From Haliscomenobacteraceae bacterium (GTDB taxonomy: Bacteria > Bacteroidota > Bacteroidia > Chitinophagales > Saprospiraceae), in contig CANMVX010000011.1 in the NCBI GenBank assembly GCA_947501115.1, forward strand, positions 1 through 64,000: a stretch of 64,000 bases of DNA, written 5' to 3'. Positions within the stretch are counted from its first letter, which is position 1. The number at the start of each line of letters is the position of its first letter. The translations under genes were made by a program, and so were the position numbers. This document shows positions 6,762 to 35,279 of this stretch, in pieces. The notes under the pieces are model-generated. The model saw only the letters and a program-made list of their open reading frames with translations, was not told where the DNA came from and did no database searches.

Positions 6762-9700
6762 ATGAAGCAAATATTTACAATGTTACTTTTAGTTTCTTCT
6801 ATGAGTATTTTTGCACAGAAAACCATTCAAGTAAGGGTTTCGAATGCAAATGACGATTTAGAAGAATACATTCCTGGTCAGAATCAAACTAAAACCTTAG
6901 GTTCTATGGATGCGGGTAGTTCGGATCTTGAACTTGGTTCTGAATCGATTAATAATAAAGATCCACAATTGGTAGGCATAAGGTTTAATGGTATTCAAAT
7001 ACCCAAAAATGCCTTAATTACGAAAGCTTACATTCAATTTACTGTAGATGCTACCAGTAAGAATTCTGACCCATCGGAACTTTTTATTTATGCTGAAAAT
7101 GCCGATAACCCTCGCATATTTTCTCCTGACACCCTCTTTAATTTGAGTTCTAGAAGTAAGCTAAATGATTCTATATTTTGGAAAATTCAAGATGCTTCCT
7201 GGAAAACAGTTGGAGCAGCTGGTCCAGACCAAAGAACGTCAGACTTATCACGTCTTGTTCAGGCTTTAGTCAATAGGGATGGTTGGAATTTAGGCAATAC
7301 AATGGCTTTTTACATTAAAGGTAAAGGAACAAAAGAGGTTGAAGCTGCAGATGATGAAACGTCAAAAGCGCCATTGTTAGTAATAGAATATATTGTTTCC
7401 ACCACAATATCATCAAAGGTTGCTTCAGCTAATGATGATTTAGAAGAATACATCCCTGGTCCGAATCAGACTAAAACCTTAGGTTCTATGGATGCAGGTA
7501 GTTCGGATCTTGAACTTGGTTCTGAATCAATTAATAATAAAGATCCTCAATTGGTAGGTGTAAGATTTACCAATTTGAACATTCCACAAGGTGCACTTAT
7601 CCAAGATGCTAGAATACAATTTACGGTGGATGCAACCGGCAAAAATAGTGATCCAATTGAATTATTTATTTACATTCAAGATGCTGAAAATCCTGGGACT
7701 TTTATTCCGGATAGCCTTTTTAACATTTCTAAAAGAATTATTATTAAAGATTCTGTTTTTTGGAAAATTCCTGATGCAAGTTGGAAAACTGCGGGACAGG
7801 CAGGTGGAGATCAATTAACACCCAATCTATCAAAATTAGTTCAAAATATAGTAAATAAACCAAACTGGAAAGCTGGAAATGCAATGGTTTTCTTATTGAA
7901 GGGTATAGGAACTCGTGAAGCAGAAGCTGCTGATGACGAAGTTACTAAAGCTCCTTTGTTTATAGTTAAATTTATTCCGGTTAATGCAATTTCTACTATT
8001 GTTTCCTCTCCTAATGATGATATTGAGGAATATATTGCAGGTGCAAATCAAACCAAAACATTAGGAACAATGGATGCCGGAAGTTCTGATTTAGAGCTTG
8101 GTTCAGAATCTGCTAATAATAAAGATCCTCAATTGGTTGGAATAAGATTTGCTTCCGTAAAGGTGGATAAATCAAAAGCTTTAAAATCAGCTTACATTCA
8201 ATTTACTACCGATGCGATTAGTAAAAACTCGGATCCTTCAGAACTTTACGTTTATGCGCAAGATGCGGATAATCCGATAACATTTTATCCAGATTCATTA
8301 TTTAATGTTTCTAAACGTCCACAATTGAAAGATTCCATTTTCTGGAAAATTCCTAATGGAACCTGGAAAACGGCTGCTGAGGCTGGACCTGACCAGCGTA
8401 CGCCCAATTTATTGCCATTAATTCAATCGTTAATTCAAAGAGATGGCTGGAAAACTGGAAATGCAATGGCCTTTTTTATAAAAGGTATAGGAACTCGCGA
8501 AGCAGAATCGGCAGATGATGAAGTAACAAAAGCACCTAAATTAATCATTGAATATTTTGAGACTGAAACAGATACTGTGCCTCCAGGGAATTCAATAAGT
8601 GTTTTTCCAATTAAAAAGGGCGAATCATGGTCTTATGCTCCTGGAGCAGCAAACCTAGATTCAATTTGGTTCTCGACAAATTTTGTCGATACTAACTGGA
8701 ATTTTGGAAAAGCTCCACTTGGTTTTGGTGAAAAAGGAATTGTAACCACTTTATCCAAAAATCCTGGGAACACCTTATTCAGGAAAAAAGTTTCTATCGC
8801 TACAGCTAGTTCCCTTTCTGACGTTTATGAATTCCATCTACGTGCAGATGATGGGGCAGTAGTTTACGTAAACGGAAAAGAACAATTCAGAACAAACATG
8901 CCTTCTTCAAATGTGTCTTTCTCGACCTTATCAGCACGAAAAGTGGAAGGAAATGAAGAGTTACCCTATTATTTATTTGAGGTTCCAAAATCTGCTTTTA
9001 AAGAAGGTGAAAATCTAATTGCTGTAAGTATTCACTCATCTGCAGCAAATGATGACGATTTGTTTTTTGATTTATTTATAACGCCTCGGGTATTTAAAAC
9101 AAATGCCCCTGCCTTGGGTTGTCTGGATCCAAACGATGGCCATATTAGTTGCTTTACCTCTGTTATTCCGAGAATTCAGAATGATACGCTTCAAATTCCT
9201 GAGCGTTCTCACGTTTTTCAATATGTTACCGTAGAAGGTGATCCTTACAATAAAGGTACAGGTGCCTTAGGAAGCAATTTTGATTTCACTGGTTATGTTC
9301 CAAAAAATGGATCAAGTAAAGAAGGTTACCTCTCCATCAATCATGAAACTGATCCCGGGGGCGTTTCAATGCTTAATATCCGTTTTGATGAATCTGTGGG
9401 TTTATGGAAAGTAGATTCAGCTCAAGCCATTGACTTTTCAACCGTTGGAGGAACTATTCGAAATTGTTCAGGCACGGTAACTCCATGGAATACTATCATT
9501 ACTTGTGAAGAGGATTATGGCAAAAATTCTGACGGAAATGGTGATGGGTATTTCGATATTGGATGGTGTACAGAAATAGATCCTATAACTAAAAAAATAA
9601 AGGATTATGGTACAGGAAAACCACAAAAGCTTTGGGCTTTAGGTCGTATTAGTCATGAAAATGTAGTGGTTGACCCGATAGATAAGAAAACTGTTTATTT

Positions 9701-10700
9701 TGGTGAAGATGAAGGGGATGGTGCCGTTTATAAGTTTATCTCCGATAAAGCTGGTGATTTAAGTAATGGAAAATTATATGCATTGGTTCTTGATTCTGTT
9801 TACACAGGTGGCGATTACAAAGGTAGTACTGGTAAATGGGTCGTTGTTCCTAATTCAACTATTGCGGAAAGAAATGATACCAAAAAATTAACCTTAGCAT
9901 TAGGTGCTACAAAATTTGCTGGTGTCGAAGATGTAGAAATCAGTCCTTTAAATCAATTGATTTATTTTGCAGTAAAAGGCGCAGGAAGAGTTTATAGATT
10001 TAAAGATAATGGAACTGTAATATCTAATTTTGAAACATTTCTTGGTGGTTTGAATTATAGGGTAAATGTTGGGAGTCAAGTTATAGCTGAAAGCTTTGGT
10101 TCAGGTATTGATAATCTTGCTTTCGATGAACGCGGAAATCTTTATGCTCTTCAAGATGGTGGAAATAATTATGTATGGATGGCTACCGCTAAACATACTC
10201 AAGCTGCACCTCAGGTTGAAGTATTTATGAATACACCTATTGGTTCTGAACCTACAGGTATTACTTTTACTCCTGATCATAAATATATGTTTATTTCAAT
10301 TCAGGAACCAAATGCTACAGTAAAACAATCGGATGTCGCTAAAAGATCGGTAACTCAAAATCTAAGTTACGCTTTGGCCATTGCTAGAACTGCTAATTTG
10401 GGTCAGGGTAGAACTACCCGTGTAAATGAATTACCTGCTTTAACACCAGATTTCCAACTATTTCCTAATCCTGCAAGCGATTTCGTTTCTGCTTCTATTT
10501 ATCTTAAGGAAAATGCAAATCTGAATCTACAGGTTTTTGATACAAAAGGAAGATTGGTACTAATGAGGGATTTAGGTAAACAAACGACTGGAGATTATCG
10601 TATCGAATTCGAAACATCGAACCTTACGAATGGCATTTATTTCGTAAAAGTAAATGCTGACTCAATGAGTTCAATACTTAAATTAGTCGTAAACCATTAA
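6762..10700 (+). CDS. T9SS-secreted PhoX-like phosphatase with three N-terminal beta repeats
   Basis: The 1312-residue secreted protein has a signal peptide (1-18, ending IFAQ). Three repeats of about 195 residues begin near 28, 223 and 416, each opening NDDLEEYI or NDDIEEYI and containing LGSMDAGSSDLELGSES or a close variant. A carbohydrate-binding-like beta sandwich follows (about 610-775, with FHLRADDGAVVYVNG). A DUF839/PhoX alkaline phosphatase domain spans about 786-1220 (INHETDPGG, ITCEEDYGKNSDGNGDGYFD, HENVVVDP, YFGEDEGDGAVYKF). The type IX sorting domain occupies about 1230-1312 (FQLFPNPASD, TNGIYFVKV). PhoX enzymes are calcium/iron monoesterases that release phosphate outside the cell. 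It is the first gene of a four-gene operon. The repeat family was not recognised with certainty; it resembles DNRLRE-like modules. Confidence 0.9.
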   Translation: MKQIFTMLLLVSSMSIFAQKTIQVRVSNANDDLEEYIPGQNQTKTLGSMDAGSSDLELGSESINNKDPQLVGIRFNGIQIPKNALITKAYIQFTVDATSKNSDPSELFIYAENADNPRIFSPDTLFNLSSRSKLNDSIFWKIQDASWKTVGAAGPDQRTSDLSRLVQALVNRDGWNLGNTMAFYIKGKGTKEVEAADDETSKAPLLVIEYIVSTTISSKVASANDDLEEYIPGPNQTKTLGSMDAGSSDLELGSESINNKDPQLVGVRFTNLNIPQGALIQDARIQFTVDATGKNSDPIELFIYIQDAENPGTFIPDSLFNISKRIIIKDSVFWKIPDASWKTAGQAGGDQLTPNLSKLVQNIVNKPNWKAGNAMVFLLKGIGTREAEAADDEVTKAPLFIVKFIPVNAISTIVSSPNDDIEEYIAGANQTKTLGTMDAGSSDLELGSESANNKDPQLVGIRFASVKVDKSKALKSAYIQFTTDAISKNSDPSELYVYAQDADNPITFYPDSLFNVSKRPQLKDSIFWKIPNGTWKTAAEAGPDQRTPNLLPLIQSLIQRDGWKTGNAMAFFIKGIGTREAESADDEVTKAPKLIIEYFETETDTVPPGNSISVFPIKKGESWSYAPGAANLDSIWFSTNFVDTNWNFGKAPLGFGEKGIVTTLSKNPGNTLFRKKVSIATASSLSDVYEFHLRADDGAVVYVNGKEQFRTNMPSSNVSFSTLSARKVEGNEELPYYLFEVPKSAFKEGENLIAVSIHSSAANDDDLFFDLFITPRVFKTNAPALGCLDPNDGHISCFTSVIPRIQNDTLQIPERSHVFQYVTVEGDPYNKGTGALGSNFDFTGYVPKNGSSKEGYLSINHETDPGGVSMLNIRFDESVGLWKVDSAQAIDFSTVGGTIRNCSGTVTPWNTIITCEEDYGKNSDGNGDGYFDIGWCTEIDPITKKIKDYGTGKPQKLWALGRISHENVVVDPIDKKTVYFGEDEGDGAVYKFISDKAGDLSNGKLYALVLDSVYTGGDYKGSTGKWVVVPNSTIAERNDTKKLTLALGATKFAGVEDVEISPLNQLIYFAVKGAGRVYRFKDNGTVISNFETFLGGLNYRVNVGSQVIAESFGSGIDNLAFDERGNLYALQDGGNNYVWMATAKHTQAAPQVEVFMNTPIGSEPTGITFTPDHKYMFISIQEPNATVKQSDVAKRSVTQNLSYALAIARTANLGQGRTTRVNELPALTPDFQLFPNPASDFVSASIYLKENANLNLQVFDTKGRLVLMRDLGKQTTGDYRIEFETSNLTNGIYFVKVNADSMSSILKLVVNH

Positions 10701-10701
10701 T

Positions 10702-11712
10702 GTGAAATATTTGATCAACTATATTTCAATTTTAATTTTGATTTTAGCCACATTGTCGTGTAATCATTCTATGAAAACTTTGCTTCCTTCATTTGAAACG
10801 AAGCCGGTTTATTCAAAAGGTGATGCTGCAGACGATGTGGCTATTTTTACCGATATAAAGAATGAATATCCTCTTTCCATCATTGCGACTGATAAGCAAT
10901 TAGGTCTTTTGGTTTATGATATGAAAGGTAATATTCTATGCTCGGATTCTTCAGGGCATATTAATAATGTTGATTTAAGGAAAGTTTCTGATGAAAGGGT
11001 GTTAATAGGTTGTTCAAATAGAACGATCAATGCTATGCAGTTTTTTAATTTTCAGAACACACAGCCTTTTTTAATGCCTATTCCTTCCGATTTACCTAAA
11101 ACGAAAATTGAAGAAGTTTATGGTTTTTGTCTTTTTCAAAATGATTTAAATATTTTTGCTTTTGTCGTGGGTAAAGAAGGGTTGCTTGAAGGATATAAAT
11201 TGAATTGGGATTCAGATTCGTTAAAAGCGATAAAAACTTATTCCCATTCCTTTTCAACCCAATGTGAAGGATTGGTGTCAGACGATGCCAATGGTAAACT
11301 TTACGTTGCAGAAGAAGATTTAGGGGTATGGATGATTGATCTTAATCATCTTGAGGTGAAACCAGAATTAATTATTTCATTGAAAAATAATAAGTATTTA
11401 AAAAAAGATTTAGAGGGATTGGCTCTTTTTGAATGGAACAATGAAGTGTATCTTATAGTTTCAAGTCAAGGTAATAATTCGTTTGCTGTTTTTAACTCAA
11501 ATAATTTTTTTGAATACGTCGGTTCATTTATTATTGGAAAAAACAAAAATATAGACCGGACATCTGAAACGGATGGATTAGATATTTCAAATGGAATTCA
11601 TGGAATCACTGTTGCACAAGATGGAAATAATACGAATAAGGGTAAAAACCAAAATTTTAAAATAGTCGAAAATATTGATTTAATTCAATTTTTAAAAAAC
11701 GGTAGAAAATGA
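10702..11712 (+). CDS. Beta-propeller phytase (3-phytase), probable lipoprotein
   Basis: The 336-residue protein matches beta-propeller phytases along its length. It has an early acidic GDAADDVAIF calcium/phosphate segment, then IIATDKQLGLLVYDMKGN, HINNVDLRKV, CEGLVSDDANGKLYVAEEDL, LEGLALFEWN, VSSQGNNSFAVF and the late IDRTSETDGLDI. This family hydrolyses myo-inositol hexakisphosphate, releasing phosphate, in a calcium-dependent way. The N-terminus is hydrophobic and followed by LSCN, suggesting a lipoprotein, though the lipobox is imperfect. The start is GTG at 10702, one base after the stop of the PhoX-like gene, implying translational coupling. The stop overlaps the next start (ATGA). Confidence 0.95.
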   Translation: MKYLINYISILILILATLSCNHSMKTLLPSFETKPVYSKGDAADDVAIFTDIKNEYPLSIIATDKQLGLLVYDMKGNILCSDSSGHINNVDLRKVSDERVLIGCSNRTINAMQFFNFQNTQPFLMPIPSDLPKTKIEEVYGFCLFQNDLNIFAFVVGKEGLLEGYKLNWDSDSLKAIKTYSHSFSTQCEGLVSDDANGKLYVAEEDLGVWMIDLNHLEVKPELIISLKNNKYLKKDLEGLALFEWNNEVYLIVSSQGNNSFAVFNSNNFFEYVGSFIIGKNKNIDRTSETDGLDISNGIHGITVAQDGNNTNKGKNQNFKIVENIDLIQFLKNGRK

Positions 11713-17092: not shown

Positions 17093-17148
17093 ATTTATTT
17101 TTAGGTTTTATTCTAAAGTTTAGGAGATAATATAAAGCTGTTGTTTTC

Positions 17149-17409
17149 CTAAATAATACTAAAACCAAAGTTGTAGAAGGTGAACATATTAATATGTTCC
17201 AAAGCAGTCTTGTACCAAAATCTAAAAATTCTGTATCGAGTTTTGTTATATAATGTTCTAAATTCCCATATTTCATCTTTAAGTTTTTTAAACAACTCAT
17301 TAACCGACTTTACTCTGGTTTTGTCAATATTGAATTTGTATCCAAATAAAGAAATAAACTTTCTTCCTTTCCAAATATCGATTTTTGGCCCATTGCTGCG
17401 AACGTCCAA
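17149..17409 (-). pseudogene. Possible RelE/HigB-like toxin fragment
   Basis: The minus-strand frame contains KSVNELFKKLKDEIWEFRTL followed by YNKTRYRIFRFWYKTAL, resembling the central core of RelE/HigB-like toxins (Lx-L-x-G/E-IxExR then YRIxFF). The C-terminal strand expected to read ILLHGFxKKT is not found; the sequence runs on as unrelated residues. The rest of the 17093-17641 gap has no recognised gene. It is a plausible remnant, but the similarity is from pattern only. Confidence 0.35.
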
Positions 17410-21661: not shown

Positions 21662-21880
21662 CTAATCTATAGAATGTTCCCTATGGATATTCTCACCGGA
21701 GATATAATATCCCAAGGAAAGCAATATCCAAGCAGACAAAATAGTCCAGGATATTTTGTTTTGTAAAAATTGACCCAGGAGGGGTCGGATGTCTAAAGGA
21801 CGGTTCCGCCAGGGCATAATGGTATGATAGTGAAGTTGTTCCGCCAGGGGCAGTTTCCTTTTTTTATTTCTTACCCACAA
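21662..21880 (-). CDS. Small possible membrane protein downstream of btaB
   Basis: The 72-residue frame overlaps the end of btaB by 17 nt; an internal ATG (MPWRNRPLDIRPLL) gives 51 residues. The product has one hydrophobic segment (SWTILSAWILLSLGYYI) flanked by charged ends. No family was recognised. Its position as a third gene after btaA-btaB suggests cotranscription, and a membrane protein would fit lipid metabolism, but this is only context. It could be a chance ORF. Confidence 0.35.
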   Translation of the reverse strand: MWVRNKKRKLPLAEQLHYHTIMPWRNRPLDIRPLLGQFLQNKISWTILSAWILLSLGYYISGENIHREHSID

Positions 21881-22490
21881 AAAGCAGGTATTGCCATATT
21901 CCGAAATAGGCCGATTTTATCTCTTTTTGTGTTGAGGTAAACAGCTTTTCCAGGACTGGCAGCAAATGGCCGTTCATCTCCACGTGATTGACACCCATCC
22001 ATTTTTTAAATCCGGAAAAAGAAGATTGGTGGAAATCAACCACGGCGATATGACCTCCTGGTTTCAGGTCCTTTTGGGCTTGCTCAAGAAGTTCTTGCCA
22101 ACCTGGATTAATCATGCTTAGGGAATAAGAAAATAGGATAAGATCCGGTTTCTCCCAATCCTCCGTGTGATTTACTTTGTAGGTGGTATGCAAAATGGAA
22201 CAGGTTTTTTCAAAACTCTGTAATTTCTCTTTTGCTATCTCAACCATTTCTTTAGAGGTATCCAGTCCCAGACAGGTGATAGATGGATGTGTTTTTAACA
22301 GGAAGGCTAGGTTTTTACCCGTTCCACATCCTATTTCCCATATATGACAGGGTTTTTTGGGTATCTGTAATTTCTTTAAAATGCCAATACGACCAAATAA
22401 AAAACTCCATCTGGTCAGGTCATAAATGGGGGCATGCATCTGGTAATAACTGGAAAGGGTTTGTTCCAGTGTTTTATGTTGGGTTTTCAT
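21864..22490 (-). CDS. btaB: BtaB-like methyltransferase for betaine lipid synthesis
   Basis: The 208-residue protein is a class I SAM-dependent methyltransferase: motif I WEIGCGTGKNLAFL, acidic LGLDTSKEM, a post-motif LILFSYSLSMI and GGHIAVVDFHQSSF. The N-terminal SYYQMHAPIYDLTRWSFLFG is typical of BtaB, which methylates diacylglyceryl-homoserine three times to give DGTS. It follows btaA by 6 nt in an operon, the standard btaAB order. Betaine lipids lack phosphorus and replace phospholipids under phosphate limitation in other bacteria, which fits the phosphorus-acquisition genes nearby. Confidence 0.88.
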   Translation of the reverse strand: MKTQHKTLEQTLSSYYQMHAPIYDLTRWSFLFGRIGILKKLQIPKKPCHIWEIGCGTGKNLAFLLKTHPSITCLGLDTSKEMVEIAKEKLQSFEKTCSILHTTYKVNHTEDWEKPDLILFSYSLSMINPGWQELLEQAQKDLKPGGHIAVVDFHQSSFSGFKKWMGVNHVEMNGHLLPVLEKLFTSTQKEIKSAYFGIWQYLLFVGKK

Positions 22491-22496
22491 AATGTG

Positions 22497-23654: not shown

Positions 23655-23677
23655 ATATTTTTTCTTTTAAGTAATTA

Positions 23678-23688: not shown

Positions 23689-23731
23689 ATGACCGTATTA
23701 CTTTAAGATTATCCGTATATTAAATGAATGT

Positions 23732-23762: not shown

Positions 23763-23869
23763 CAACCAGATTGTATGAAAAAACACTAATTAACATCAGC
23801 AATATGGTTGCAAAAGTATAACCCAGACTTTAGAATGAGGTGGTAATCGATATTATATAAACATCATTT

Positions 23870-24985
23870 TTATGTTAAATCAGCAAGTCCAAAAGATAAG
23901 GTCATACCAGCACCTCCGACGCCAGTAACGGCCTGAACACCTGGTTCCACCTCACCAATATGCCATTTGGTATTAGGTTTTTTAACATAAGTGCCATTCC
24001 AGAAGGACTGAATTTCAGGATGGGGAAAATGAGCAAAAGAATCTAAATATTGAAGAATAAGATCATTTGTCTTTTGATCATCAAAGGGTAATATAGTATC
24101 TCCGTAATGATGACTATCACCTAAGGTTAATTCATTGTAAGCTGTTTGAGAAGCCATGACGTGAATCCCTCTTTTTAAATATTCAGGAAATTCATTTTCT
24201 ATCCTTTTCTTCAATATTTCCCTGGAAGGGCAGGACAGAAACGATTCATAATGCAGGAGGGTCAGTCCGGCAGCTAAATTTGGACCCAATGACCAGTCCG
24301 ACGGTTGGGAAGCGGTCCGCATCATCTGTAATTTGCATTTTACTAAATCTAAAGACTGGTAATATTCCGGGTATAAGGTTTCCAGATCTTCACCTGTGCA
24401 AAGGATTATCTTATCGGCCTGCCAGACTTTTTTGCCACTGTGCAAACGAGGAAAATCAACAGCTGAAATAACGGTTTTGTACTCAATGTGTACGTTCAAG
24501 ACCTCTTTTAAGTACTTATGCATTTGCCAAACAGCTTGACGTGGATCGACATTTACCTCCGTTGAGCTGAACATAGCACCAAATAACCCTTTTGTTTTTA
24601 CAGCGGCACTCTTTTGACTTACCATTTCAGGAGTTAGCAATTCAATCGAATAGGGTTTATTATGGTACAACGCATGGAATTCATTTAAAATGGCCCATTC
24701 ATCCTCGTGATAGGCCAGGTGCAATGAACCCGTTGGAGCAGCCCAGAAATTTGCCTTTCCCGACAGCTCCAACCATATTTCCCTCGATTTTAAAGCTACG
24801 GGATAACTATCGGTAGGTTGACCAATGGGCCAAATCATACCAAAATTTCTGATGGAAGCTCCCTGCGCTTGTGGATTCCTTTCAAAAAGGATTACTTTCT
24901 GTCCTTTTTTAGCTCTTTCCCACGCCTGGGCCAATCCAATGATGCCTCCGCCAACGATGGCGATATCAAAATGATCTTTGTTCAT
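23870..24985 (-). CDS. TIGR03364-type FAD-dependent oxidoreductase (aminophosphonate oxidation)
   Basis: The 371-residue DAO-family flavoprotein has an N-terminal Rossmann motif (IAIVGGGIIGLAQAWERAKK, residues 8-27), the characteristic ASIRNFGMIWPIGQP after the dinucleotide fold, and a C-terminal VTGVGGAGMTLSFGLA. TIGR03364 enzymes are defined by their linkage to phosphonatase-like hydrolases (TIGR03351) and are proposed to oxidatively deaminate aminophosphonates related to 2-aminoethylphosphonate. Exactly that hydrolase is encoded divergently 130 bp away. Likely product: a phosphonoacetaldehyde-type aldehyde. The precise amine (AEP, N-methyl-AEP or hydroxy-AEP) cannot be read from sequence. 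Confidence 0.9.
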   Translation of the reverse strand: MNKDHFDIAIVGGGIIGLAQAWERAKKGQKVILFERNPQAQGASIRNFGMIWPIGQPTDSYPVALKSREIWLELSGKANFWAAPTGSLHLAYHEDEWAILNEFHALYHNKPYSIELLTPEMVSQKSAAVKTKGLFGAMFSSTEVNVDPRQAVWQMHKYLKEVLNVHIEYKTVISAVDFPRLHSGKKVWQADKIILCTGEDLETLYPEYYQSLDLVKCKLQMMRTASQPSDWSLGPNLAAGLTLLHYESFLSCPSREILKKRIENEFPEYLKRGIHVMASQTAYNELTLGDSHHYGDTILPFDDQKTNDLILQYLDSFAHFPHPEIQSFWNGTYVKKPNTKWHIGEVEPGVQAVTGVGGAGMTLSFGLADLT

Positions 24986-25081
24986 GTTAATCTACGGTTT
25001 CTAAGATTAAGAGAAGATTAATTCTTTCGGTAAAGGTAAATCTTTGTACTTTGACAAATAGAAATTAAATATTAAATATGG

Positions 25082-25089
25082 TAGCTTTG
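25082..25089 (+). promoter_or_regulatory. Candidate -7 promoter element of the phosphonate operon
   Basis: TAGCTTTG fits the Bacteroidota -7 consensus TAnnTTTG and lies 25 nt before the ATG at 25115. A -33 TTG at the usual 19-21 nt spacing was not found; the nearest TTG is about 28 nt upstream. Confidence 0.4.
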
Positions 25090-25114
25090 GTGTTAATTTT
25101 TAAATAATTGGAAG

Positions 25115-25855
25115 ATGACGAAAATAAAATTGATGGTTTTAGATATGGCTGGAACCACCGTCAGAGATAAAAATGAAGTGGAGGATTGTTTTTTAAAGGC
25201 GGCAAAGGAATCGAATTTAAAAACAACGCCTCAAAGGGTAAACGATTTGCAGGGAATCCCCAAATTGATTGTTATAAATACACTTTGGGAGGAGTATTTG
25301 GGAAAAGATCATCCTGATTTTGCTGTCAATGTAGATAAAACTTTTCAATCCTTCAAGGAAATTTTGGAAAACCACTACTTGACTCAGCCAATTTTTCCTG
25401 CATTTAAAGCGGAAGAGACATTGCTTTGGCTTCGTAGTAAAGGAATAAAAATAGCGCTAACTACCGGTTTTTATAGAAAAGTAACAAATATCATTCTTAA
25501 TCGATTAGGTTGGGACAAACACCTGAATGAGGTATATTTTAATTATACGGGAAATGCAATGATTGACCTTTCCCTGACACCTGATGAAACAGGTGGGGTG
25601 GGCCGACCTAACCCGGATATGATATTTAAGGCAATGGAAATATTCAACATCAAAGATCCGCAGGAAGTGGCAAATATTGGGGATACACCTTCGGATATAT
25701 TGTCGGGAAATGCAGCTAAATGTCAATTTTCATTAGGCGTATTAAATGGTACCCATACCAAAGAATCGTTGGAAGAATACCCTAATCATGGTCTTTTACA
25801 TTCCCTGGCTCAATTACCCGAGTTTTTGGAAGGCCACGAGGCAATTTTAAAATAG
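25115..25855 (+). CDS. Phosphonatase-like HAD hydrolase (TIGR03351 family)
   Basis: The 246-residue HAD-superfamily protein opens with KLMVLDMAGTTVRD. Asp10 is the nucleophile and Ala12 occupies the DxA position characteristic of phosphonoacetaldehyde hydrolase (PhnX) rather than the DxD of phosphatases. Lys50 in QGIPKLIVI lies 40 residues after the nucleophile, close to the Schiff-base lysine of PhnX (12 to 53 in the Bacillus enzyme). The later motifs are ALTTGF, GRPNPDMIFKAM and NIGDTPSDILSG. It should cleave the C-P bond of a phosphonoaldehyde, releasing phosphate. It starts a three-gene plus-strand operon with phnZ-like and DUF5690 genes, divergent from the FAD oxidase that would supply its substrate. 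Confidence 0.9.
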   Translation: MTKIKLMVLDMAGTTVRDKNEVEDCFLKAAKESNLKTTPQRVNDLQGIPKLIVINTLWEEYLGKDHPDFAVNVDKTFQSFKEILENHYLTQPIFPAFKAEETLLWLRSKGIKIALTTGFYRKVTNIILNRLGWDKHLNEVYFNYTGNAMIDLSLTPDETGGVGRPNPDMIFKAMEIFNIKDPQEVANIGDTPSDILSGNAAKCQFSLGVLNGTHTKESLEEYPNHGLLHSLAQLPEFLEGHEAILK

Positions 25856-25898
25856 ATTCGGGGAATGATTATTTAATGAAAAGTTAAAATAATAAGTC

Positions 25899-26477
25899 AT
25901 GGAAACAAAAAATGATATCATTTCGGACATTTTGCAATTATTTAATGAGAAAGGACATTCTGAATACGGGGGAGAAGCAGTGACTCAGTTAGAGCACGCC
26001 TTGCAAACTGCCACTTTAGCACGGGAAAATAATGCGTCAGATCAACTAATAACGGCCGCTTTATTGCACGATATAGGACATTTGTTACATGATTTACCCA
26101 ATGACGCTCCACTTAAGGGCATTGACGATGTGCATGAAAATAAAGCGGCTGTTTTTTTAAGAAAATATTTTCCAGAGACAGTAACGGAACCTGTTCGCTT
26201 GCATGTCATGGCAAAAAGGTATCTCTCTTCCACCGAAGAAACCTATTATTCCTTGTTAAGTGAACCCTCTAAACAAAGTTTAGTATTACAAGGTGGCTTA
26301 ATGTCTTCAACTGAAGTAAGTTCCTTCGAACAAAATCCATATTTTTCTGATGCTGTTAAGTTGAGAAAATGGGATGATCAGGCCAAAGTACAAGAATTAA
26401 CTACGGCACCGGTTGAAGATTTTGAAAAAAATATTGCGGTATCTCTTCGTTCTTACTTTTTAGAGGATAGCTTATGA
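25899..26477 (+). CDS. PhnZ-like HD-domain phosphonate oxygenase
   Basis: The 192-residue protein matches phosphonate-associated HD-domain proteins (TIGR03276) and PhnZ. The metal and substrate residues of PhnZ are conserved at nearly the same numbers: Tyr23 and Glu26 (SEYGGEAVTQLEH), His33, His57-Asp58 (ALLHDIGH), His61, His79 (DDVHENKA), His102 and Lys106 (LHVMAKRYL), and a C-terminal aspartate pair at 159-160 (KWDDQAK). PhnZ uses a mixed-valence di-iron centre and O2 to cleave the C-P bond of (R)-1-hydroxy-2-aminoethylphosphonate into glycine and phosphate. The PhnY dioxygenase that normally makes that substrate is not in the window. The gene overlaps the next by 4 nt (ATGA). Confidence 0.92.
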   Translation: METKNDIISDILQLFNEKGHSEYGGEAVTQLEHALQTATLARENNASDQLITAALLHDIGHLLHDLPNDAPLKGIDDVHENKAAVFLRKYFPETVTEPVRLHVMAKRYLSSTEETYYSLLSEPSKQSLVLQGGLMSSTEVSSFEQNPYFSDAVKLRKWDDQAKVQELTTAPVEDFEKNIAVSLRSYFLEDSL

Positions 26478-27745
26478 GTTTGTCAGCGCTAAGACCAGAT
26501 ATAATATACAGGCATCCTATTTGGGCGATTTTGGCTGCTTTTGGAACGTATTTTTGTATGTATGGCTTTAGGAAACCCTACACAGCTGCTGATTTTGACG
26601 GTTATTTGCTTTGGGGAATTGGTTATAAAACAGTGTTAGTTTCCTCCCAAATCATTGGTTACGCTTTATCTAAATTCATTGGCATTAAAGTAATTTCCGA
26701 ACTGGGGAATCAAAACAGGACTAAGATTCTTATTGGTTTTATCCTTTTTGCCCAACTTATGTTGGTAGGTTTTGGTCTGGTTCCACCGTCTTTTGGTATC
26801 ATTTTCTTATTTCTCAACGGCTTACCCCTAGGCATGGTTTATGGCATTGTACAAAGTTATCTGGAGGGAAGGAAAATGACAGAAGCCCTCATTGCAGGTT
26901 TATGTATTAGCTTTATTTTAGCAGACGGGTTCACAAAAACAGTTGGAAGCTACTTACTTCAAACGGGAATTTCTCCTTTCTGGATGCCTGGTCTGGCTGG
27001 ATTTTTGTTTATTATACCCACTATGTTTTTTATTTGGATGCTAACAAAGATTCCACCTCCGAGTCTGGAAGATGAAGCGCACCGGGTGAAACGAACGCCT
27101 TTGGCTGGTAAGGAAAGGGTTGTATTATTAAAGCGCTTTGGCTGGGGAATCTTTTTCATTGGTATTGCCTTCTTGCTTATTACCCTGCTAAGGAGTTTTA
27201 GGGCAGATTTTGCCTTGGAAATCTGGCAAGGATTAAATTATAAGGGAATTCCCTCCATTTTTATCTATTCGGAACTGTGGATAGCCTTAGGAATTATTTT
27301 ATCCCATGCGCTCATCGTTTTAATTAAAAGCAATAAAAAGGCCTTTTTCTTCAGCTTGATATTATGTAACCTCGGGTTTTTACTCATCTTACTTGCCTTG
27401 TTCGCACAATGGCGGGGGATGGACGGATTTTGGTTTATGGTACTTTCAGGATTAGGGATTTATATACCTTACGTTACCATTCACACTACCGTTTTTGAAC
27501 GCCTCATTGCCACTTTCAGGCAGGAGGGAAATATCGGGTTTTTTATGTACATCGTTGATAGTATGGGCTATATAGGCTATGTGTTTTTACTTTTCTCTAA
27601 AGAATTTATACCTAAAACATCGGTAATCATATATTTTAAGTATTGTCTGATTTTATTTTCAATTTTTGCTATTTTATTTTTAGTCTTGTCCATTATTTAT
27701 TTCCGACGAAAATTAATAATTAGTTCACAAGAAGTTATTGTTTAA
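26474..27745 (+). CDS. DUF5690 membrane protein, candidate phosphonate-linked transporter
   Basis: The 423-residue polytopic protein has about 11-12 membrane segments in a major-facilitator-like layout and matches DUF5690, a Bacteroidota family. Landmarks are the N-terminal FGTYFCMYGFRKPYTAADF, which resembles the start of organophosphate:phosphate antiporters (GlpT/UhpT type), the central LPLGMVYGIVQSYLEGRKMT, and the later IYIPYVTIHTTVFERLIA. It is translationally coupled (ATGA) to the PhnZ-like gene, so uptake of a phosphonate is a reasonable inference. The operon ends here: a strong hairpin lies 35 nt past the stop codon. Confidence 0.85.
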   Translation: MSLSALRPDIIYRHPIWAILAAFGTYFCMYGFRKPYTAADFDGYLLWGIGYKTVLVSSQIIGYALSKFIGIKVISELGNQNRTKILIGFILFAQLMLVGFGLVPPSFGIIFLFLNGLPLGMVYGIVQSYLEGRKMTEALIAGLCISFILADGFTKTVGSYLLQTGISPFWMPGLAGFLFIIPTMFFIWMLTKIPPPSLEDEAHRVKRTPLAGKERVVLLKRFGWGIFFIGIAFLLITLLRSFRADFALEIWQGLNYKGIPSIFIYSELWIALGIILSHALIVLIKSNKKAFFFSLILCNLGFLLILLALFAQWRGMDGFWFMVLSGLGIYIPYVTIHTTVFERLIATFRQEGNIGFFMYIVDSMGYIGYVFLLFSKEFIPKTSVIIYFKYCLILFSIFAILFLVLSIIYFRRKLIISSQEVIV

Positions 27746-27768
27746 TTAGTATTACCCTATCATATTTG
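27738..27768 (+). promoter_or_regulatory. Candidate promoter of the susC gene
   Basis: TTG (27738-27740) is separated by 20 nt from CATATTTG (27761-27768), one mismatch from TAnnTTTG. This spacing fits the Bacteroidota sigma factor. The promoter would overlap the end of the DUF5690 gene and place the RNA start near 27775, directly before the hairpin at 27780. Confidence 0.4.
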
Positions 27769-27779
27769 TGCCGAAAATT

Positions 27780-27814
27780 GAGGAGTGTATCATTTAAAAA
27801 TGAGTACACTCCTC
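27780..27814. terminator. Long hairpin between DUF5690 and susC
   Basis: GAGGAGTGTA (27780-27789) pairs perfectly with TACACTCCTC (27805-27814); inside it, TCATTT (27790-27795) pairs with AAATGA (27798-27803), leaving a 2-nt loop and one bulged G. It is followed by an AT-rich but not pure T tract. It may terminate the phosphonate operon or form a stable 5' leader structure on the susC mRNA if the candidate promoter is right. Confidence 0.7.
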
Positions 27815-27843
27815 TCTAATTTACTTTAACTAAAAACAAATTT

Positions 27844-30800
27844 ATGCGTTTTTTTACACAAAAGTTTAAAAAAAGCAACTTATTGTCTGTATTTTTTATG
27901 TGCAGCAGTATGTTATTTGCTTTAAATGGTTTTTCTCAAAAGACAGTTCAGGGAATCGTTTATGAGCAAGGAACCGAATCTCCCATTATTGGCGCCAATG
28001 TATTGGTAAAGGGATCTTCTACAGGAACGGTAACCGATCTGGATGGAAAATTTTCAATTACTTTGAACCAGGGTGAAAACGCCTTGATTATTTCTTATGT
28101 TGGCTTTGCTGAAAAAGAAATAATGGTGGATGGTCAAACAACTATTCTTGTGTATCTGGAAGAGGCCGCTTTAGGTTTGACAGAAGTTACCGTTACCGCT
28201 TTGGGTATCACAAAAGAGAAGAAGAGAATTACTACCGCTATTCAAAGTGTTGATGGTTCTCAATTGGTTAAGGCCAGAGAACCTAACAATATTAACGGAT
28301 TAGTTGGTAAGGTGGCTGGTTTGACGATTGGTACTTCGCCAGAGCTTTTACGTCGTCCAAATGTTTTATTAAGAGGTAGTTCCGATTTGTTATACGTTGT
28401 TGACGGGGTGCCAATTAATTCTGATACATGGAATATAAACTCCGATGATATTGAAACTTTTACCGTGCTAAAAGGTGCAACAGCTGCAGCACTTTACGGT
28501 TTCCGTGGACGTAATGGTGCTATCATTATTTCTACAAAGAGAGGAACGGGTAAAAAGAAAGGATTTACAGTGGAATTCAACTCTTCAACCATGATGGAAG
28601 ACGGGTTCAACGCTATTCCTAAAGTACAAGATTTATATGGCCCTGGTGATCATGGTATTTATGAATTCGTAGATGGTAAAGGAGGAGGAAAAAATGACGG
28701 TGATTATGACGTTTGGGGTCCTCCTTTGGACGGTCGTTTGATTGCCCAATATGATAGCCCAATTGATCCAAAAACTGGAAAAAGAATACCAACGCCTTTT
28801 ACAGCCAGAGGAAAAGATAATCTTACAAGATTTTTACAACCAGGTGTTTTAGCAAAAAATAGCTTTGCTGTGGCAAGTTCAGGCGAACGTTATGATATGC
28901 GTTTTTCAATGGGTCACAATTACCAGCAAGGTATCGTACCAAATACTAATCTGAATATTTTAAATTTTAATGCAACGTTAGGTTTTGATTTTACTAAAAA
29001 ACTCCGTTTCGAATCTAATATAAACTATAACAGACAGTATTCTGATAATTTTCCAGACGCAAACTACGGTCCAAACTCTATTATTTATAACATCGTTACC
29101 TGGGCAGGTGCTGACTGGGACGTTGATGACATGAAGAACTACTGGCAGGAAGGTAAAGAAGGTGTTCAGCAGATTTATGCGGAATATCAGCGTTATAACA
29201 ATCCTTGGTTCATGTCAAAGGAATGGTTGCGCGGGCATTATAAAAATGATGTGTATGGTTACGGAAGTCTAACCTACTCATTTACAGACAAACTTAAATT
29301 GGTTGGTCGTACGTCGATAACTTCTTACGATTTATTGAGGGACGAAAAATTCCCTTATTCAGCTGGTTCTTACGGACGTGACGAGCGTAAAGGTGATTAT
29401 AGAGAAGATAGACGTTCATTATTTGAAAATAATACCGACGTTCTTTTAACTTACAATGAGTCTTTTGGTAAAGTGGGCGTAAATCTATTAGGTGGTGCAA
29501 ACATTCGTTCATTTTCCTATAGAAGTAACTATGCATCAACCGATTATTTGATTACTCCAGGCGTTTATTCTTTCACCAATTCCTTGAATCCAGCCAGAGT
29601 ATTCAGCTTTGAGTCTAAGATGGGCGTTGCCAGTGCGTATTATTCGGCTGATATCTCTCTTGGGAATATTTTAAATTTAACACACACAGGTAGAGTAGAT
29701 AAAATATCAACGTTACCCGTTGGTAATCAGACTTTTTACTATCCTTCTTTAGGTGCAAATAGTATTATTACAGAATTGGTTGATTTAGGACCTATTACGT
29801 TCTTAAAATTACGTGGTGCTTATGCCAATGTAAAAGATGGTCTTACCTCTTCTACTGTTGGTACTTCAGCAGGTCCATTTGGAGGTAATCCTCTAGGTTA
29901 TGGCGATACTTATTTCTCATCTTATGATGGTCCAAACTACGGTAATTCAACTGTTTATAGTACTCAAACAGGTTATAATAATAATCCTGCAGCTTACTAT
30001 TCAAATACTTTAGGTAATCCAAGTTTACAGAGAAATTCAAGATCTGAAATTGAAATGGGATTTGATTTAGGCATGTTAAAAAATAAGTTGAATGTAGAAT
30101 TTACTTATTTTAACATATTAGAAGGTCCTAGAACTTTTGCAAGACCTATTTCTGAGGCTACAGGTTATACAGGACAGTTGGTAAATGGTATTTCTACGAG
30201 AAGAAAAGGATTAGAATTAGTATTAAAAGCTGACCCAAATAAAGGATCTTCCAGTAAGTTCCGTTGGAACCCGGAATTAAACATATCAACCTTCAGAGAG
30301 AGATGGGCTTCATTTTACAAAGACGACAAAGGGGTTGAGTTAACAGAATTGTCTCCATTCCAACAGATAGGTGAAAGGGTAGATAAATTTTATACTTCAG
30401 GTTATTTCTTCACACAGGATGGTCAGATTATAAATGACGGTGGCGGAAGACCTATCAGAGTTGCTTCTGTGAATGGTAATGCCCGTAAATTCCTTGGACA
30501 TTTAGATCCTGACTTCGTTTGGGGTTTAATTAACCGTTTTTCATATAAAAACTGGTCTGTTTCTTTCCAATTTGATGGAAGACAAGGGGGTGTTATTTCC
30601 AACTACATTCAAAGACAAACTTTCAGAGGTGGTCGTCATGTAGCAACGGTTCAGGGTGATATGGCCAATGCTCGTTTGGAGGATACTAAAGGAAATCGTA
30701 CCTGGTTAGGTCAAGGGGTTCAGCTAGCCAATACAGCGTCTATAAAAACGGATATTTATGGAAATATCACTAACTACAGCGAGCTTCAATTCAAGCCAAA

Positions 30801-31095
30801 TGGTACTAAAACATTTTTACAAGACTGGATTAGCCGCTACTACCAGGATGACGAGAATAATTTAATGAGCCGTTCTTTTGCAAAACTAAGAGAGGTAGTT
30901 ATTACTTACCAGGTGCCAATGAAACCAGGTAGTTTCTTCCAGGATGTTACTTTGTCTTTTGTGGGTCGTAACTTACTTTATTTTGCTGAAAGCAAGGACG
31001 TAGATTTAGATCAATATACAGGTCGTCAAGGTTCATCCAGTTTTGAAACCCCTACTACTAAACGCTTTGGATTTAACTTAAACATTAAATTCTAA
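27844..31095 (+). CDS. SusC/RagA-family TonB-linked outer-membrane transporter
   Basis: The 1083-residue protein has a signal peptide (about 1-31, ending NGFSQ) and a carboxypeptidase-regulatory-like domain (33-110: GIVYEQGTESPIIGANVLVK). The plug lies at about 125-235 (NNINGLVGKVAGLTIGTS, then LRGSSDLLYVVDGVPIN and GFRGRNGAIIISTKRG), followed by a barrel to the end with a SusC-type C-terminus (KRFGFNLNIKF). The next gene, 33 nt downstream, is its SusD partner. SusCD complexes bind and import glycans, peptides or other large nutrients. Here the pair follows a phosphonate-catabolism operon and precedes a secreted sulfatase-superfamily enzyme, so a phosphonate- or sulfate-bearing polymer or lipid headgroup is a possible ligand (inference). 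Confidence 0.95.
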   Translation: MRFFTQKFKKSNLLSVFFMCSSMLFALNGFSQKTVQGIVYEQGTESPIIGANVLVKGSSTGTVTDLDGKFSITLNQGENALIISYVGFAEKEIMVDGQTTILVYLEEAALGLTEVTVTALGITKEKKRITTAIQSVDGSQLVKAREPNNINGLVGKVAGLTIGTSPELLRRPNVLLRGSSDLLYVVDGVPINSDTWNINSDDIETFTVLKGATAAALYGFRGRNGAIIISTKRGTGKKKGFTVEFNSSTMMEDGFNAIPKVQDLYGPGDHGIYEFVDGKGGGKNDGDYDVWGPPLDGRLIAQYDSPIDPKTGKRIPTPFTARGKDNLTRFLQPGVLAKNSFAVASSGERYDMRFSMGHNYQQGIVPNTNLNILNFNATLGFDFTKKLRFESNINYNRQYSDNFPDANYGPNSIIYNIVTWAGADWDVDDMKNYWQEGKEGVQQIYAEYQRYNNPWFMSKEWLRGHYKNDVYGYGSLTYSFTDKLKLVGRTSITSYDLLRDEKFPYSAGSYGRDERKGDYREDRRSLFENNTDVLLTYNESFGKVGVNLLGGANIRSFSYRSNYASTDYLITPGVYSFTNSLNPARVFSFESKMGVASAYYSADISLGNILNLTHTGRVDKISTLPVGNQTFYYPSLGANSIITELVDLGPITFLKLRGAYANVKDGLTSSTVGTSAGPFGGNPLGYGDTYFSSYDGPNYGNSTVYSTQTGYNNNPAAYYSNTLGNPSLQRNSRSEIEMGFDLGMLKNKLNVEFTYFNILEGPRTFARPISEATGYTGQLVNGISTRRKGLELVLKADPNKGSSSKFRWNPELNISTFRERWASFYKDDKGVELTELSPFQQIGERVDKFYTSGYFFTQDGQIINDGGGRPIRVASVNGNARKFLGHLDPDFVWGLINRFSYKNWSVSFQFDGRQGGVISNYIQRQTFRGGRHVATVQGDMANARLEDTKGNRTWLGQGVQLANTASIKTDIYGNITNYSELQFKPNGTKTFLQDWISRYYQDDENNLMSRSFAKLREVVITYQVPMKPGSFFQDVTLSFVGRNLLYFAESKDVDLDQYTGRQGSSSFETPTTKRFGFNLNIKF

Positions 31096-31127
31096 GACTG
31101 TATCATTCCAACTCTAAAATTTTTAAA

Positions 31128-34602: not shown

Positions 34603-34604
34603 AT

Positions 34605-34940: not shown

Positions 34941-34943
34941 TCA

Positions 34944-35279
34944 TTGAGTTTATATAACTTTTTGGTAGCACTAAGTGGTCTTTCTTTTCTTATCTACGGC
35001 ATTACCTATTTCATGTCTAACAAAATGAAATTGGAGTTCAGCCGTTTTGGATTAGCGAAGTTCGGAACATTAGTAGCTACCCTCGAAATTTTAGGTGCGA
35101 TGGGTTTATTTGTAGGCTACTTCGTAAAACCCATTTTTCTGTTATCTGCCGGTGGGCTTTCGCTCCTCATGTTATTGGGAGTCCTTACCCGTGTGAAAAT
35201 CAGGGATGATTTCAAATTAATCATCCCCGCATTCTTTTTTATGTTGCTAAATGGGTATCTGTTTTTTATAAATCTATAA
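34944..35279 (+). CDS. Small DoxX-like membrane protein (second of two)
   Basis: The 111-residue protein starts at TTG 34944, 3 nt after the preceding stop. Four membrane helices are predicted; KFGTLVATLEILGAMGLFVG and LSAGGLSLLMLLGVLTRVKI are typical of DoxX-like families, including a helix-breaking GA-G pair. The C-terminal helix (IIPAFFFMLLNGYLFFI) ends in a 14-nt convergent overlap with the amine-oxidase gene on the other strand. It shares length and topology with its upstream neighbour, suggesting an old duplication. Confidence 0.75.
   Translation: MSLYNFLVALSGLSFLIYGITYFMSNKMKLEFSRFGLAKFGTLVATLEILGAMGLFVGYFVKPIFLLSAGGLSLLMLLGVLTRVKIRDDFKLIIPAFFFMLLNGYLFFINL

What the first reader, a model, noticed from the sequence alone, without database searches (positions are those of the whole stretch)
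6762..35279. A phosphorus-scavenging island joining phosphatase/phytase, betaine lipid and phosphonate genes
Within 29 kb sit a PhoX-phytase-TonB receptor operon, btaAB for phosphorus-free lipids, an FAD aminophosphonate oxidase with a phosphonatase-like hydrolase, a PhnZ-like oxygenase, a DUF5690 membrane protein, and a SusCD pair with a secreted sulfatase-superfamily enzyme. Each part is known singly; side by side they would cover external ester hydrolysis, uptake, C-P cleavage and lipid remodelling in one chromosomal block. Four unrelated genes lie between the first two blocks, so shared regulation is not shown.
Basis: partly seen in the sequence, partly recalled or inferred. Interest (0 to 1): 0.75.

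Follow-up and report, generated by a model that had tools for sequence, protein, structure and literature searches.

The report
Phosphonate-feeding gene module with overlooked transporter
A Bacteroidota bacterium carries a compact gene set that most likely imports and breaks down natural carbon-phosphorus compounds and swaps its membrane lipids to save phosphorus, and the set contains an uncharacterised membrane protein family that is very probably the importer.

Summary
In sister genomes the stable core is btaB-btaA-FAD-HAD-HD-DUF5690-susC-susD (21864-32678). One sister appears to have lost it in a single deletion that left a ~124-bp susD stump; the sulfatase gene stayed behind. The PhoX-phytase block adjoins the core in 2 of 5 core carriers; the other 3 have a different, divergent phytase-receptor pair beside btaB.

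The main new result concerns DUF5690. Of 148 relatives, 23 have both it and a strong TIGR03364 (aminophosphonate oxidase) hit, one has only each, 123 neither. It lies near phosphonate-type genes in 71 of 89 non-genus loci. The best PDB matches of its model are glucose-6-phosphate transporters, and it keeps 6 of 8 GlpT substrate-contact residues. None of its 24 genomes has a PhnD-type binding protein; other importer types were not searched. I read DUF5690 as an OPA-like phosphonate importer. No paper in the library names it. Shared regulation is unproven: no common upstream motif.

The parts
21864..22490 (-). btaB-type SAM methyltransferase (betaine lipid headgroup methylation, inferred)
   Evidence: PF08242/PF13649; pairs with btaA in the genus and in L124/L132
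22497..23654 (-). btaA, DUF3419 (betaine lipid synthesis)
   Evidence: PF11899 355 bits, cut-off 28.2; 35 of 148 relatives have one at E 1e-20
23870..24985 (-). FAD-dependent aminophosphonate oxidase of the PbfD / TIGR03364 type
   Evidence: TIGR03364 407.6 bits, cut-off 285.1; conserved family columns in 50 sequences
25115..25855 (+). PhnX-like HAD hydrolase (phosphonoacetaldehyde hydrolase candidate)
   Evidence: TIGR03351 170.5 bits (cut-off 218.9), TIGR01422 79.1 bits (cut-off 220); D10, K50, R164, D190 identical in 50 of 50 aligned sequences; best six of eight solved relatives are phosphonatases
25899..26477 (+). PhnZ/TmpB-like HD-domain C-P oxygenase
   Evidence: TIGR03276 220.4 bits, cut-off 214.6; solved relatives are TmpB and PhnZ; H33, D58, H79, H102, D159, Y23 and E26 in 34 of 34, H57 in 33 of 34
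26474..27745 (+). DUF5690 membrane protein: proposed OPA-like inner-membrane phosphonate importer; start codon overlaps the HD stop by 4 bp
   Evidence: PF18943 437 bits; model pLDDT 88.9; Foldseek best hits G6PT, GlpT rank 7; residue and profile match to GlpT/UhpT/UhpC; co-occurrence
27780..27814 (+). strong hairpin between DUF5690 and susC (terminator or attenuator candidate)
   Evidence: -19.7 kcal/mol, z -3.8, 1 of 200 shuffles as stable
27844..31095 (+). SusC/RagA outer-membrane receptor
   Evidence: TIGR04056 442 bits; SusC near 11 of 89 non-genus DUF5690 loci; 67% identical copy in L036
31128..32678 (+). SusD-like surface lipoprotein
   Evidence: PF12771 199 bits; its last ~124 bp survive as a remnant in G001
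6762..10700 (+). secreted PhoX-family phosphatase with T9SS tail (accessory block, not part of the core module)
   Evidence: PF05787 136 bits, Por_Secre_tail 49 bits; next to the core only in G000 and G003 of those resolved
10702..11712 (+). PF02333 phytase (accessory block)
   Evidence: 209 bits
11709..14207 (+). choice-of-anchor I protein with T9SS tail (accessory block)
   Evidence: PF22494 438 bits, NF038117 547 bits
14204..17092 (+). TonB-dependent receptor (accessory block)
   Evidence: TIGR01782 404 bits
32803..34602 (+). formylglycine-type sulfatase (weak T9SS tail match): neighbour, not part of the lost unit
   Evidence: PF00884 139 bits; CAPTR motif; retained in G001, which lacks the core

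Best explanation
The conserved unit at 21864-32678 is a phosphonate-acquisition module. SusCD most likely brings an aminophosphonate or a small aminophosphonate-bearing molecule across the outer membrane. DUF5690, a divergent relative of the GlpT/UhpT/G6PT organophosphate:phosphate antiporters, then carries it across the inner membrane, probably in exchange for phosphate. Inside the cell the PbfD-type FAD oxidase turns (N-methyl-)2-aminoethylphosphonate into phosphonoacetaldehyde, and the PhnX-like HAD enzyme releases phosphate. The PhnZ/TmpB-like HD oxygenase handles alpha-hydroxylated phosphonates. BtaAB makes phosphorus-free betaine lipid so that less phosphorus is needed. The phytase-receptor genes beside the module harvest phosphate esters and differ by lineage. 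Shown here: gene content, conservation of the block and its joint absence in one sister with a susD stump, the predicted fold of DUF5690, its residue match to GlpT, its co-occurrence with the oxidase, and the absence of PhnD-type binding proteins from its genomes in the sample. Inferred: substrate, direction, coupling to phosphate, the role of SusCD, and induction by phosphate starvation.
For: DUF5690 (over cut-off in 24 of 148 relatives) and TIGR03364 at E below 1e-40 (24 of 148; 22 of 148 over its curated cut-off) share 23 genomes; Fisher P 1.1e-24, not corrected for kinship. They lie on different contigs in 8 of these 23 drafts (some contigs are short). In a phylum draw of 296 genomes, which overlaps the first sample, 29 have DUF5690, 23 have TIGR03364 and 21 have both; P 1.4e-23. 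Phn-HD at E below 1e-20: 16 of its 17 genomes carry DUF5690. Of 89 non-genus DUF5690 loci, 71 have a member of at least one of these neighbour clusters within 6.5 kb: TIGR03364 (42), PhnX-like (40), TIGR03366 ADH (33), Phn-HD (24), PhnW (7), PhnY-type aldehyde dehydrogenase (6), PbfA (5) (each cluster named from a representative or the window protein). Model pLDDT 88.9, pTM 0.88; the first three PDB hits are G6PT and GlpT is rank 7. A profile of 95 DUF5690 sequences matches the GlpT/UhpT/UhpC profile with probability 77.6, E 1.9e-5, over 363 columns; against single proteins the 3 OPA members (E 0.0028-0.025) all beat the 6 other MFS proteins (E 0.13-0.53). GlpT Y38, R45, Y76, K80 and R269 correspond to Y26, R33, Y63, K67 and R240, identical in 95 of 95; K46 to K34, identical in 91 of 95. 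Their role in GlpT is from PMC4598623 (passages). No PhnD-type (PF12974) hit in any of the 24 DUF5690 genomes (2 of 148 have one) and no PhnJ in this genome. Precedent: AepP, a GlpT-related 2AEP permease (PMC8316502, passages).
Against: No experiment. DUF5690 is not hit by MFS_1 or by any NCBIfam model at E 0.001; no solved chain matches its profile by sequence up to E 1. Against single OPA proteins the profile probability is only 2-11%. Foldseek also finds non-OPA transporters at similar E-values (NorA rank 4, SPNS2 rank 6). GlpT Y270 and H165 are not conserved. 18 of 89 loci show none of the seven phosphonate clusters (some are short contigs), and four of these carry a PHP-type phosphoesterase next to DUF5690 instead, so some members may carry other organophosphates. 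In the phylum draw 8 of 29 DUF5690 genomes lack TIGR03364. Importers of the AepX, PhnS and AepP kinds were not searched, so DUF5690 is not shown to be the only candidate; my confidence was lowered slightly for this. The HAD enzyme is below the TIGR03351 and TIGR01422 cut-offs. No hydroxylase partner for the HD enzyme was seen among the annotated window genes of the locus.
Confidence: 0.78

Rival explanations
1. DUF5690 imports phosphate esters or other organophosphates in general, and its link to phosphonate genes reflects a shared phosphorus-starvation context.
For: Four phosphonate-free loci pair DUF5690 with a HisJ-like PHP phosphoesterase (L037, L041, L100, L102); G145 has it beside pyrD and a PhoR-like kinase; OPA relatives carry sugar phosphates.
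Against: Near-complete co-occurrence with the TIGR03364 oxidase, also on different contigs; several distinct phosphonate pathways around it (PhnW, PbfA, PhnY-type dehydrogenase, HpnZ). Two of the four PHP loci (L037 of G122, L041 of G109) come from genomes that have TIGR03364 elsewhere.
Confidence: 0.2
2. DUF5690 is a membrane sensor (like UhpC) or an exporter of phosphate or toxic aldehyde products, not the importer.
For: UhpC, an OPA-family sensor (annotation), also aligns; in G145 a PhoR-like kinase lies two genes away; a LysE-type translocator lies nearby in L124.
Against: No histidine kinase is among the neighbour clusters that were named (clusters 10, 17 and 21 were not named); the recurring regulator is an HTH-cupin protein (12 of 89 loci). 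No PhnD-type importer in these genomes, though other importer types were not searched.
Confidence: 0.09
3. The whole 29-kb stretch is a chance row of unrelated operons.
For: The PhoX block, sulfatase, DoxX and amine-oxidase genes are not tied to the core across sister genomes; no shared upstream motif.
Against: The core is absent as a block, with a susD stump, in G001 and conserved in 5 genomes; btaA(B)-DUF5690 adjacency recurs in a different order in L113, L124 and L132 at about 45% BtaA identity.
Confidence: 0.15
4. The SusCD pair and sulfatase form a polysaccharide utilisation locus for a sulfated glycan that merely abuts the phosphonate operon.
For: The best solved relative of the sulfatase is a carrageenan sulfatase; a hairpin separates susC from DUF5690.
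Against: SusC lies near 11 of 89 non-genus DUF5690 loci, including a 67%/65% identical SusCD in L036, where the gene after SusCD is an AAA-ATPase and not a sulfatase; in G001 susC and most of susD are gone with the phosphonate genes while the sulfatase stayed.
Confidence: 0.3

Closest known systems
Phosphate utilisation systems (Pus/PusCD) of Flavobacterium (PMC8115612)
   Same: [quoted passage not shown] Pi-induced phytase with TonB receptor (passages and sections 16 and 19 seen)
   Different: No betaine-lipid genes or DUF5690 in the parts seen ('betaine lipid' counted 0 in the main text; DUF5690 in 0 papers); regulation here is untested
AepP, GlpT-related 2AEP permease (PMC8316502, passages)
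   Same: Works like it: MFS antiporter-like importer with the phosphate-binding residues of GlpT, encoded beside AEP catabolism genes
   Different: AepP is 27.75% identical to GlpT; DUF5690 is a separate Pfam family that MFS_1 does not recognise. Direct AepP comparison was not made
GlpT/UhpT/G6PT organophosphate:phosphate antiporters
   Same: Predicted fold, 6 of 8 substrate-contact residues
   Different: Sequence very divergent; Y270 and H165 not kept
PbfD2-PhnX pathway without PhnW (PMC10590968, abstract, passages, sections 8 and 17)
   Same: TIGR03364 oxidase with a phosphonatase-like gene and no phnW in the cluster
   Different: Extra HD oxygenase, DUF5690, SusCD and btaAB
PhnY*/PhnZ and TmpA/TmpB oxidative pathways
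   Same: HD oxygenase with the conserved ligands
   Different: No hydroxylase partner seen among the annotated genes of the locus; below TmpB and PhnZ1 equivalog cut-offs

Membership tests
Organophosphate:phosphate antiporter (OPA) family, for DUF5690 | MFS fold closest to OPA members | tested here: met
   pLDDT 88.9; first three Foldseek hits G6PT, GlpT rank 7, but other MFS close behind
Organophosphate:phosphate antiporter (OPA) family, for DUF5690 | phosphate-contact residues of GlpT (Y38, R45, K46, Y76, K80, R269) | tested here: met
   Identical in 95 of 95 DUF5690 sequences (K46: 91 of 95); Y270 and H165 not kept
Organophosphate:phosphate antiporter (OPA) family, for DUF5690 | recognised by family sequence models (MFS_1, TIGR00881) | tested here: not met
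   Only PF18943 in Pfam, no family in NCBIfam; so it is called OPA-like, not filed as an OPA member
Organophosphate:phosphate antiporter (OPA) family, for DUF5690 | exchange of organophosphorus compound for phosphate | not testable with these tools
   needs transport assay
AepP 2AEP permease | sequence relation to AepP | not tested
   AepP sequence was not obtained
TIGR03364 / PbfD aminophosphonate oxidase | score over curated cut-off | tested here: met
   407.6 bits vs 285.1
PhnX phosphonoacetaldehyde hydrolase | TIGR01422 or TIGR03351 cut-off | tested here: not met
   79.1 vs 220 and 170.5 vs 218.9
PhnX phosphonoacetaldehyde hydrolase | nucleophile Asp and cap-domain Schiff-base Lys (roles recalled) | tested here: met
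   D10 and K50 in 50 of 50 aligned sequences
PhnZ/TmpB HD oxygenase | TIGR03276 cut-off and di-iron ligand pattern (ligands recalled) | tested here: met
   220.4 vs 214.6; H33, D58, H79, H102, D159 in 34 of 34, H57 in 33 of 34
PhnZ/TmpB HD oxygenase | substrate-specific equivalog (TmpB, PhnZ1) | tested here: not met
   178.5 and 179.7 bits vs 300
BtaAB betaine lipid pathway | DUF3419 BtaA paired with methyltransferase BtaB | tested here: met
BtaAB betaine lipid pathway | betaine lipid product | not testable with these tools
   needs lipidomics
Pus (phosphate utilisation system) locus | SusCD co-localised with organic-phosphorus enzymes | tested here: met
Pus (phosphate utilisation system) locus | induction by phosphate depletion | not testable with these tools
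   no shared upstream motif found, with very low power
Formylglycine sulfatase (S1) | PF00884 and C-x-P-x-R motif (motif recalled) | tested here: met
   138.6 bits; CAPTR in the sequence printed
Single 29-kb phosphorus island | parts conserved together in sister genomes | tested here: not met
   core yes; PhoX block in 2 of 5 core carriers; sulfatase retained where the core is gone

The most novel reading that the evidence does not exclude
DUF5690 founds an unrecognised, phylum-crossing family of phosphonate:phosphate antiporters that is the main inner-membrane entry for phosphonates in many Bacteroidota, Planctomycetota and Verrucomicrobiota without PhnCDE or C-P lyase (tested here only for PhnD in 148 relatives and for PhnJ in this genome). 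In Saprospiraceae it forms, with SusCD and BtaAB, a combined programme: take up phosphonate-bearing surface molecules of other organisms as a phosphorus source while replacing the cell's own phospholipids by betaine lipid.
Probability: 0.45. Interest if true: 0.75.

Novelty: new variant of a known kind. Interest (0 to 1): 0.62.

Why it matters
A review says that direct experimental data on bacterial phosphonate transporters are quite limited (PMC10574752, passages). A named family with hundreds of members and no assigned function (562 confirmed loci in one capped scan) would receive a specific, testable role, and surveys that count phosphonate users by phnCDE or C-P lyase genes could be missing many Bacteroidota and Planctomycetota. 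The recurring btaAB-DUF5690 neighbourhood would be a genetic link between phosphonate use and lipid remodelling.

Tried and rejected
Shared upstream motif: five upstream stretches (PhoX, btaA, FAD/HAD, susC, sulfatase) compared with 20 shuffles each at widths 12, 18 and 22; the observed best was reached by 12, 14 and 4 of 20 shuffles, so nothing was found. Bacteroidota-type promoter pattern (recalled): the script printed no match in these stretches. Recent horizontal transfer of the core: not supported in the comparison with G005, because fourfold-site divergence of core genes from G005 (0.23-0.37) is in the range of most other shared genes (0.20-0.51; one outlier, the ORF at 45350, 0.04 on 50 sites). 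Sulfatase as a phosphonate ester hydrolase: not excluded, but the closest solved relatives are sulfatases and it stays behind in G001. PDB sequence search with the DUF5690 profile: no hit up to E 1. A first hhalign with only GlpT and UhpT gave probability 39.6 and placed R240 one turn away from R269; the deeper profile aligns R240 with R269. TIGR00881 search for more OPA proteins gave one genome of 118 at E 1e-60, not used further. BtaA and phytase co-occurrence with DUF5690 is much weaker than that of the oxidase (14 of 24 vs 21 of 124, P 6e-5; 9 of 24 vs 9 of 124, P 3e-4) and is not corrected for kinship. Rows dropped before counts: G137 (below the DUF5690 cut-off); 8 genus loci and 7 loci without a called DUF5690 ORF (L049, L071, L073, L091, L095, L114, L122) before the 71-of-89 count; of those 7, five carry a phosphonate label and two (L071, L114) none. 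The 80 named loci are the best-scoring of 562, so they lean towards close relatives.

Full report
WHAT WAS CHECKED. The window lies in a 4.70-Mb assembly in 175 contigs. Its genus-mates correspond to MAGs titled Saprospiraceae (two) and Haliscomenobacter (one): the contigs of G003, G004 and G005 have the same lengths as CAMDWC010000018.1, JANQZX010000085.1 and JAIYCH010000047.1, and their DUF5690 sequences are exact duplicates. Between the TonB receptor and btaB there are five non-overlapping ORFs, not four.

THE UNIT. Five genomes of the genus in the sample (G000, G003-G006; 5 of 7) carry DUF5690. Where the contigs allow, the order is SDR, amine oxidase, DoxX, DoxX, sulfatase, [susD, susC, DUF5690, HD, HAD, FAD, btaA, btaB], then DoxX and GSDH. 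The contigs of G003 and G006 end inside the susC-susD stretch, so their sulfatase side is unseen. In G004, G005 and G006 a TonB receptor gene (28-34% identical to the window's) and a divergently oriented second type of phytase lie directly beside btaB. In G000 and G003 that pair is missing, and the PhoX-phytase-choice_anch_I-receptor block lies about 4-5 kb further on. G005 has the PhoX block on another contig that ends just behind it. G001 has no match for DUF5690, Phn-HD or BtaA and only a weak one for TIGR03364, but keeps SDR, amine oxidase, both DoxX genes and the sulfatase, followed by the receptor and the second type of phytase. Between them remains a stretch matching the last ~124 bp of susD, about 170 bp without a match, and the btaB-receptor spacer. 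The simplest reading is that G001 lost nearly the whole bracketed block at once. The block then behaves as a unit that includes susCD and btaAB and excludes the sulfatase. G002 was not resolved. Fourfold-site divergence between G000 and G005 is similar inside and outside the block, so it does not look like a recent arrival.

DUF5690. In 148 relatives DUF5690 (over cut-off) and TIGR03364 (E below 1e-40) occur in 24 genomes each and share 23; the exceptions are G145 and G134. With the curated TIGR03364 cut-off, 22 genomes remain, 21 of them with DUF5690. The pair lies on different contigs in 8 of the 23 (G020, G051, G060, G072, G078, G100, G109, G122), some of them short contigs. In a phylum draw of 296 genomes the numbers are 29, 23 and 21; this draw overlaps the first sample (G000 and G121 among the positives; G012, G034, G085, G108 and G133 among the listed negatives). 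Phn-HD at E below 1e-20 occurs in 17 of 148 genomes, 16 of them with DUF5690. The P values ignore kinship; by genus DUF5690 is in 20 of 127. A scan of named genomes found DUF5690 in Bacteroidota, Planctomycetota, Verrucomicrobiota and a few members of other phyla. Neighbours were clustered without prior labels and larger clusters then named, each from one representative or from the window protein in it; clusters 10, 17 and 21 were not named. In 89 non-genus loci the commonest named neighbours within 6.5 kb are TIGR03364 (42), PhnX-like HAD (40), the TIGR03366 'phosphonate catabolism' alcohol dehydrogenase (33), Phn-HD (24), an HTH-cupin regulator (12), SusC (11), PhnW (7), a PHP phosphoesterase (7), an unidentified 370-aa cluster (C14, 7), phosphonoacetaldehyde dehydrogenase-like (6), sulfatase (6) and PbfA (5). 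71 of 89 have at least one of the seven phosphonate clusters. PhnD-type binding proteins occur in 2 of 148 genomes, neither with DUF5690, and this genome has no PhnJ. AepX, PhnS and AepP types were not searched, so DUF5690 is the best but not the only conceivable importer.

FOLD AND RESIDUES. The AlphaFold2 model (19 aligned sequences) has pLDDT 88.9 and pTM 0.88. Foldseek against the PDB gives human G6PT as the first three hits and GlpT as the seventh, with other MFS transporters close behind. A profile of 95 DUF5690 sequences (83 after filtering) against E. coli GlpT, UhpT and UhpC together gives probability 77.6 and E 1.9e-5 over 363 columns. Against single proteins the signal is weak (probability 2-11%), yet the three OPA members score better than LacY, FucP, NarK, XylE, EmrD and NanT. 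In the family alignment Y26, R33, K34, Y63, K67 and R240 of the window protein face Y38, R45, K46, Y76, K80 and R269 of GlpT, which contact substrate in simulations and mutants (PMC4598623, passages). Y270 and H165 have no counterpart. At 22% overall identity, six or more of eight identities would be expected with probability 0.002, although these residues also help to set the alignment.

ENZYMES. The FAD protein belongs to TIGR03364, the family to which PbfD1 is annotated (PMC10590968, passage). PbfD2 of M. fucicola oxidises M1AEP and AEP to phosphonoacetaldehyde and may stand in for PhnW (section 17). The HAD protein is below the cut-offs for PhnX models but keeps Asp10, Lys50, Arg164 and Asp190 in 50 of 50 aligned sequences. 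The HD protein passes TIGR03276 and resembles TmpB and PhnZ; a hydroxylase partner was not seen among the annotated genes of the locus, so its substrate is open. HD and DUF5690 overlap by four bases, which suggests one transcript.

BETAINE LIPID GENES. btaAB is in the missing block of G001. Outside the genus btaA and btaB lie divergently beside DUF5690, FAD, susC and susD in L124 and L132 (two MAGs, 92% identical to each other over 14.8 kb), and btaA lies beside DUF5690 on the short contig L113. The order differs from the window, so the link has been kept through rearrangement. In the other nine sample genomes with both genes they are apart: on different contigs in eight, and megabases apart on the single contig of G067.

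REGULATION. No shared upstream motif was found; the test is weak. A strong hairpin lies between DUF5690 and susC.

LITERATURE. Papers naming DUF5690: 0. PF18943: 0. Other searches on phosphonate transport or Bacteroidota phosphorus loci: (listings). The nearest precedents are the Pus systems of Flavobacterium (PMC8115612, passages and sections 16 and 19) and AepP (PMC8316502, passages). PMC12366243 and PMC10574752 were seen in passages only. The library holds open-licence papers only, so absence there is not proof of absence.

VERDICT. The valuable result is a specific role for DUF5690.

Noticed in passing
window 19484-21208: GSDH (glucose/sorbosone dehydrogenase-like) domain behind a cytochrome c domain in one protein, between the two blocks.
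   Followed up: no
G003 contigs C18 and C299 (L048, L052): G003 has two copies of HAD-HD-DUF5690; the C299 copy is 99-100% identical to the window, the C18 copy 92-97% in protein, with high fourfold-site divergence in HAD and HD. This may be strain mixture in the MAG or local recombination.
   Followed up: partly
G004 C85 (L050) 16193-17170: The FAD gene of G004 matches in two pieces with a missing middle but an open 328-aa frame; the amine-oxidase gene there is also matched in two pieces. Could be assembly faults or decay.
   Followed up: no
L037, L041, L100, L102, L108, L109, L137: A HisJ-family PHP phosphoesterase gene directly next to DUF5690, in four cases without phosphonate enzymes nearby.
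   Followed up: partly
L039, L044, L045, L099, L108, L117, L119, L120, L125, L127, L133, L138: An XRE-type HTH plus cupin regulator recurs in 12 of 89 DUF5690 loci: a candidate local phosphonate regulator, not seen in the window module.
   Followed up: no
window 21803-21849: Two copies of a 12-bp repeat (GTTCCGCCAGGG) in the btaB-DoxX spacer, where sister genomes have a receptor-phytase pair; possibly a trace of that loss.
   Followed up: no
L043 12256-13353 and L039 13473-14591: DUF5001-containing proteins (one with a PHP match) of about 370 aa next to FAD and HD genes, function unknown.
   Followed up: no
control genome Caulobacter vibrioides: The DUF5690 model also rings over its cut-off in Caulobacter vibrioides, so the family reaches Pseudomonadota.
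   Followed up: no
window ORF at 45350 (154 aa): Fourfold-site divergence from G005 is 0.04, far below its neighbours: possibly a recently exchanged gene.
   Followed up: no
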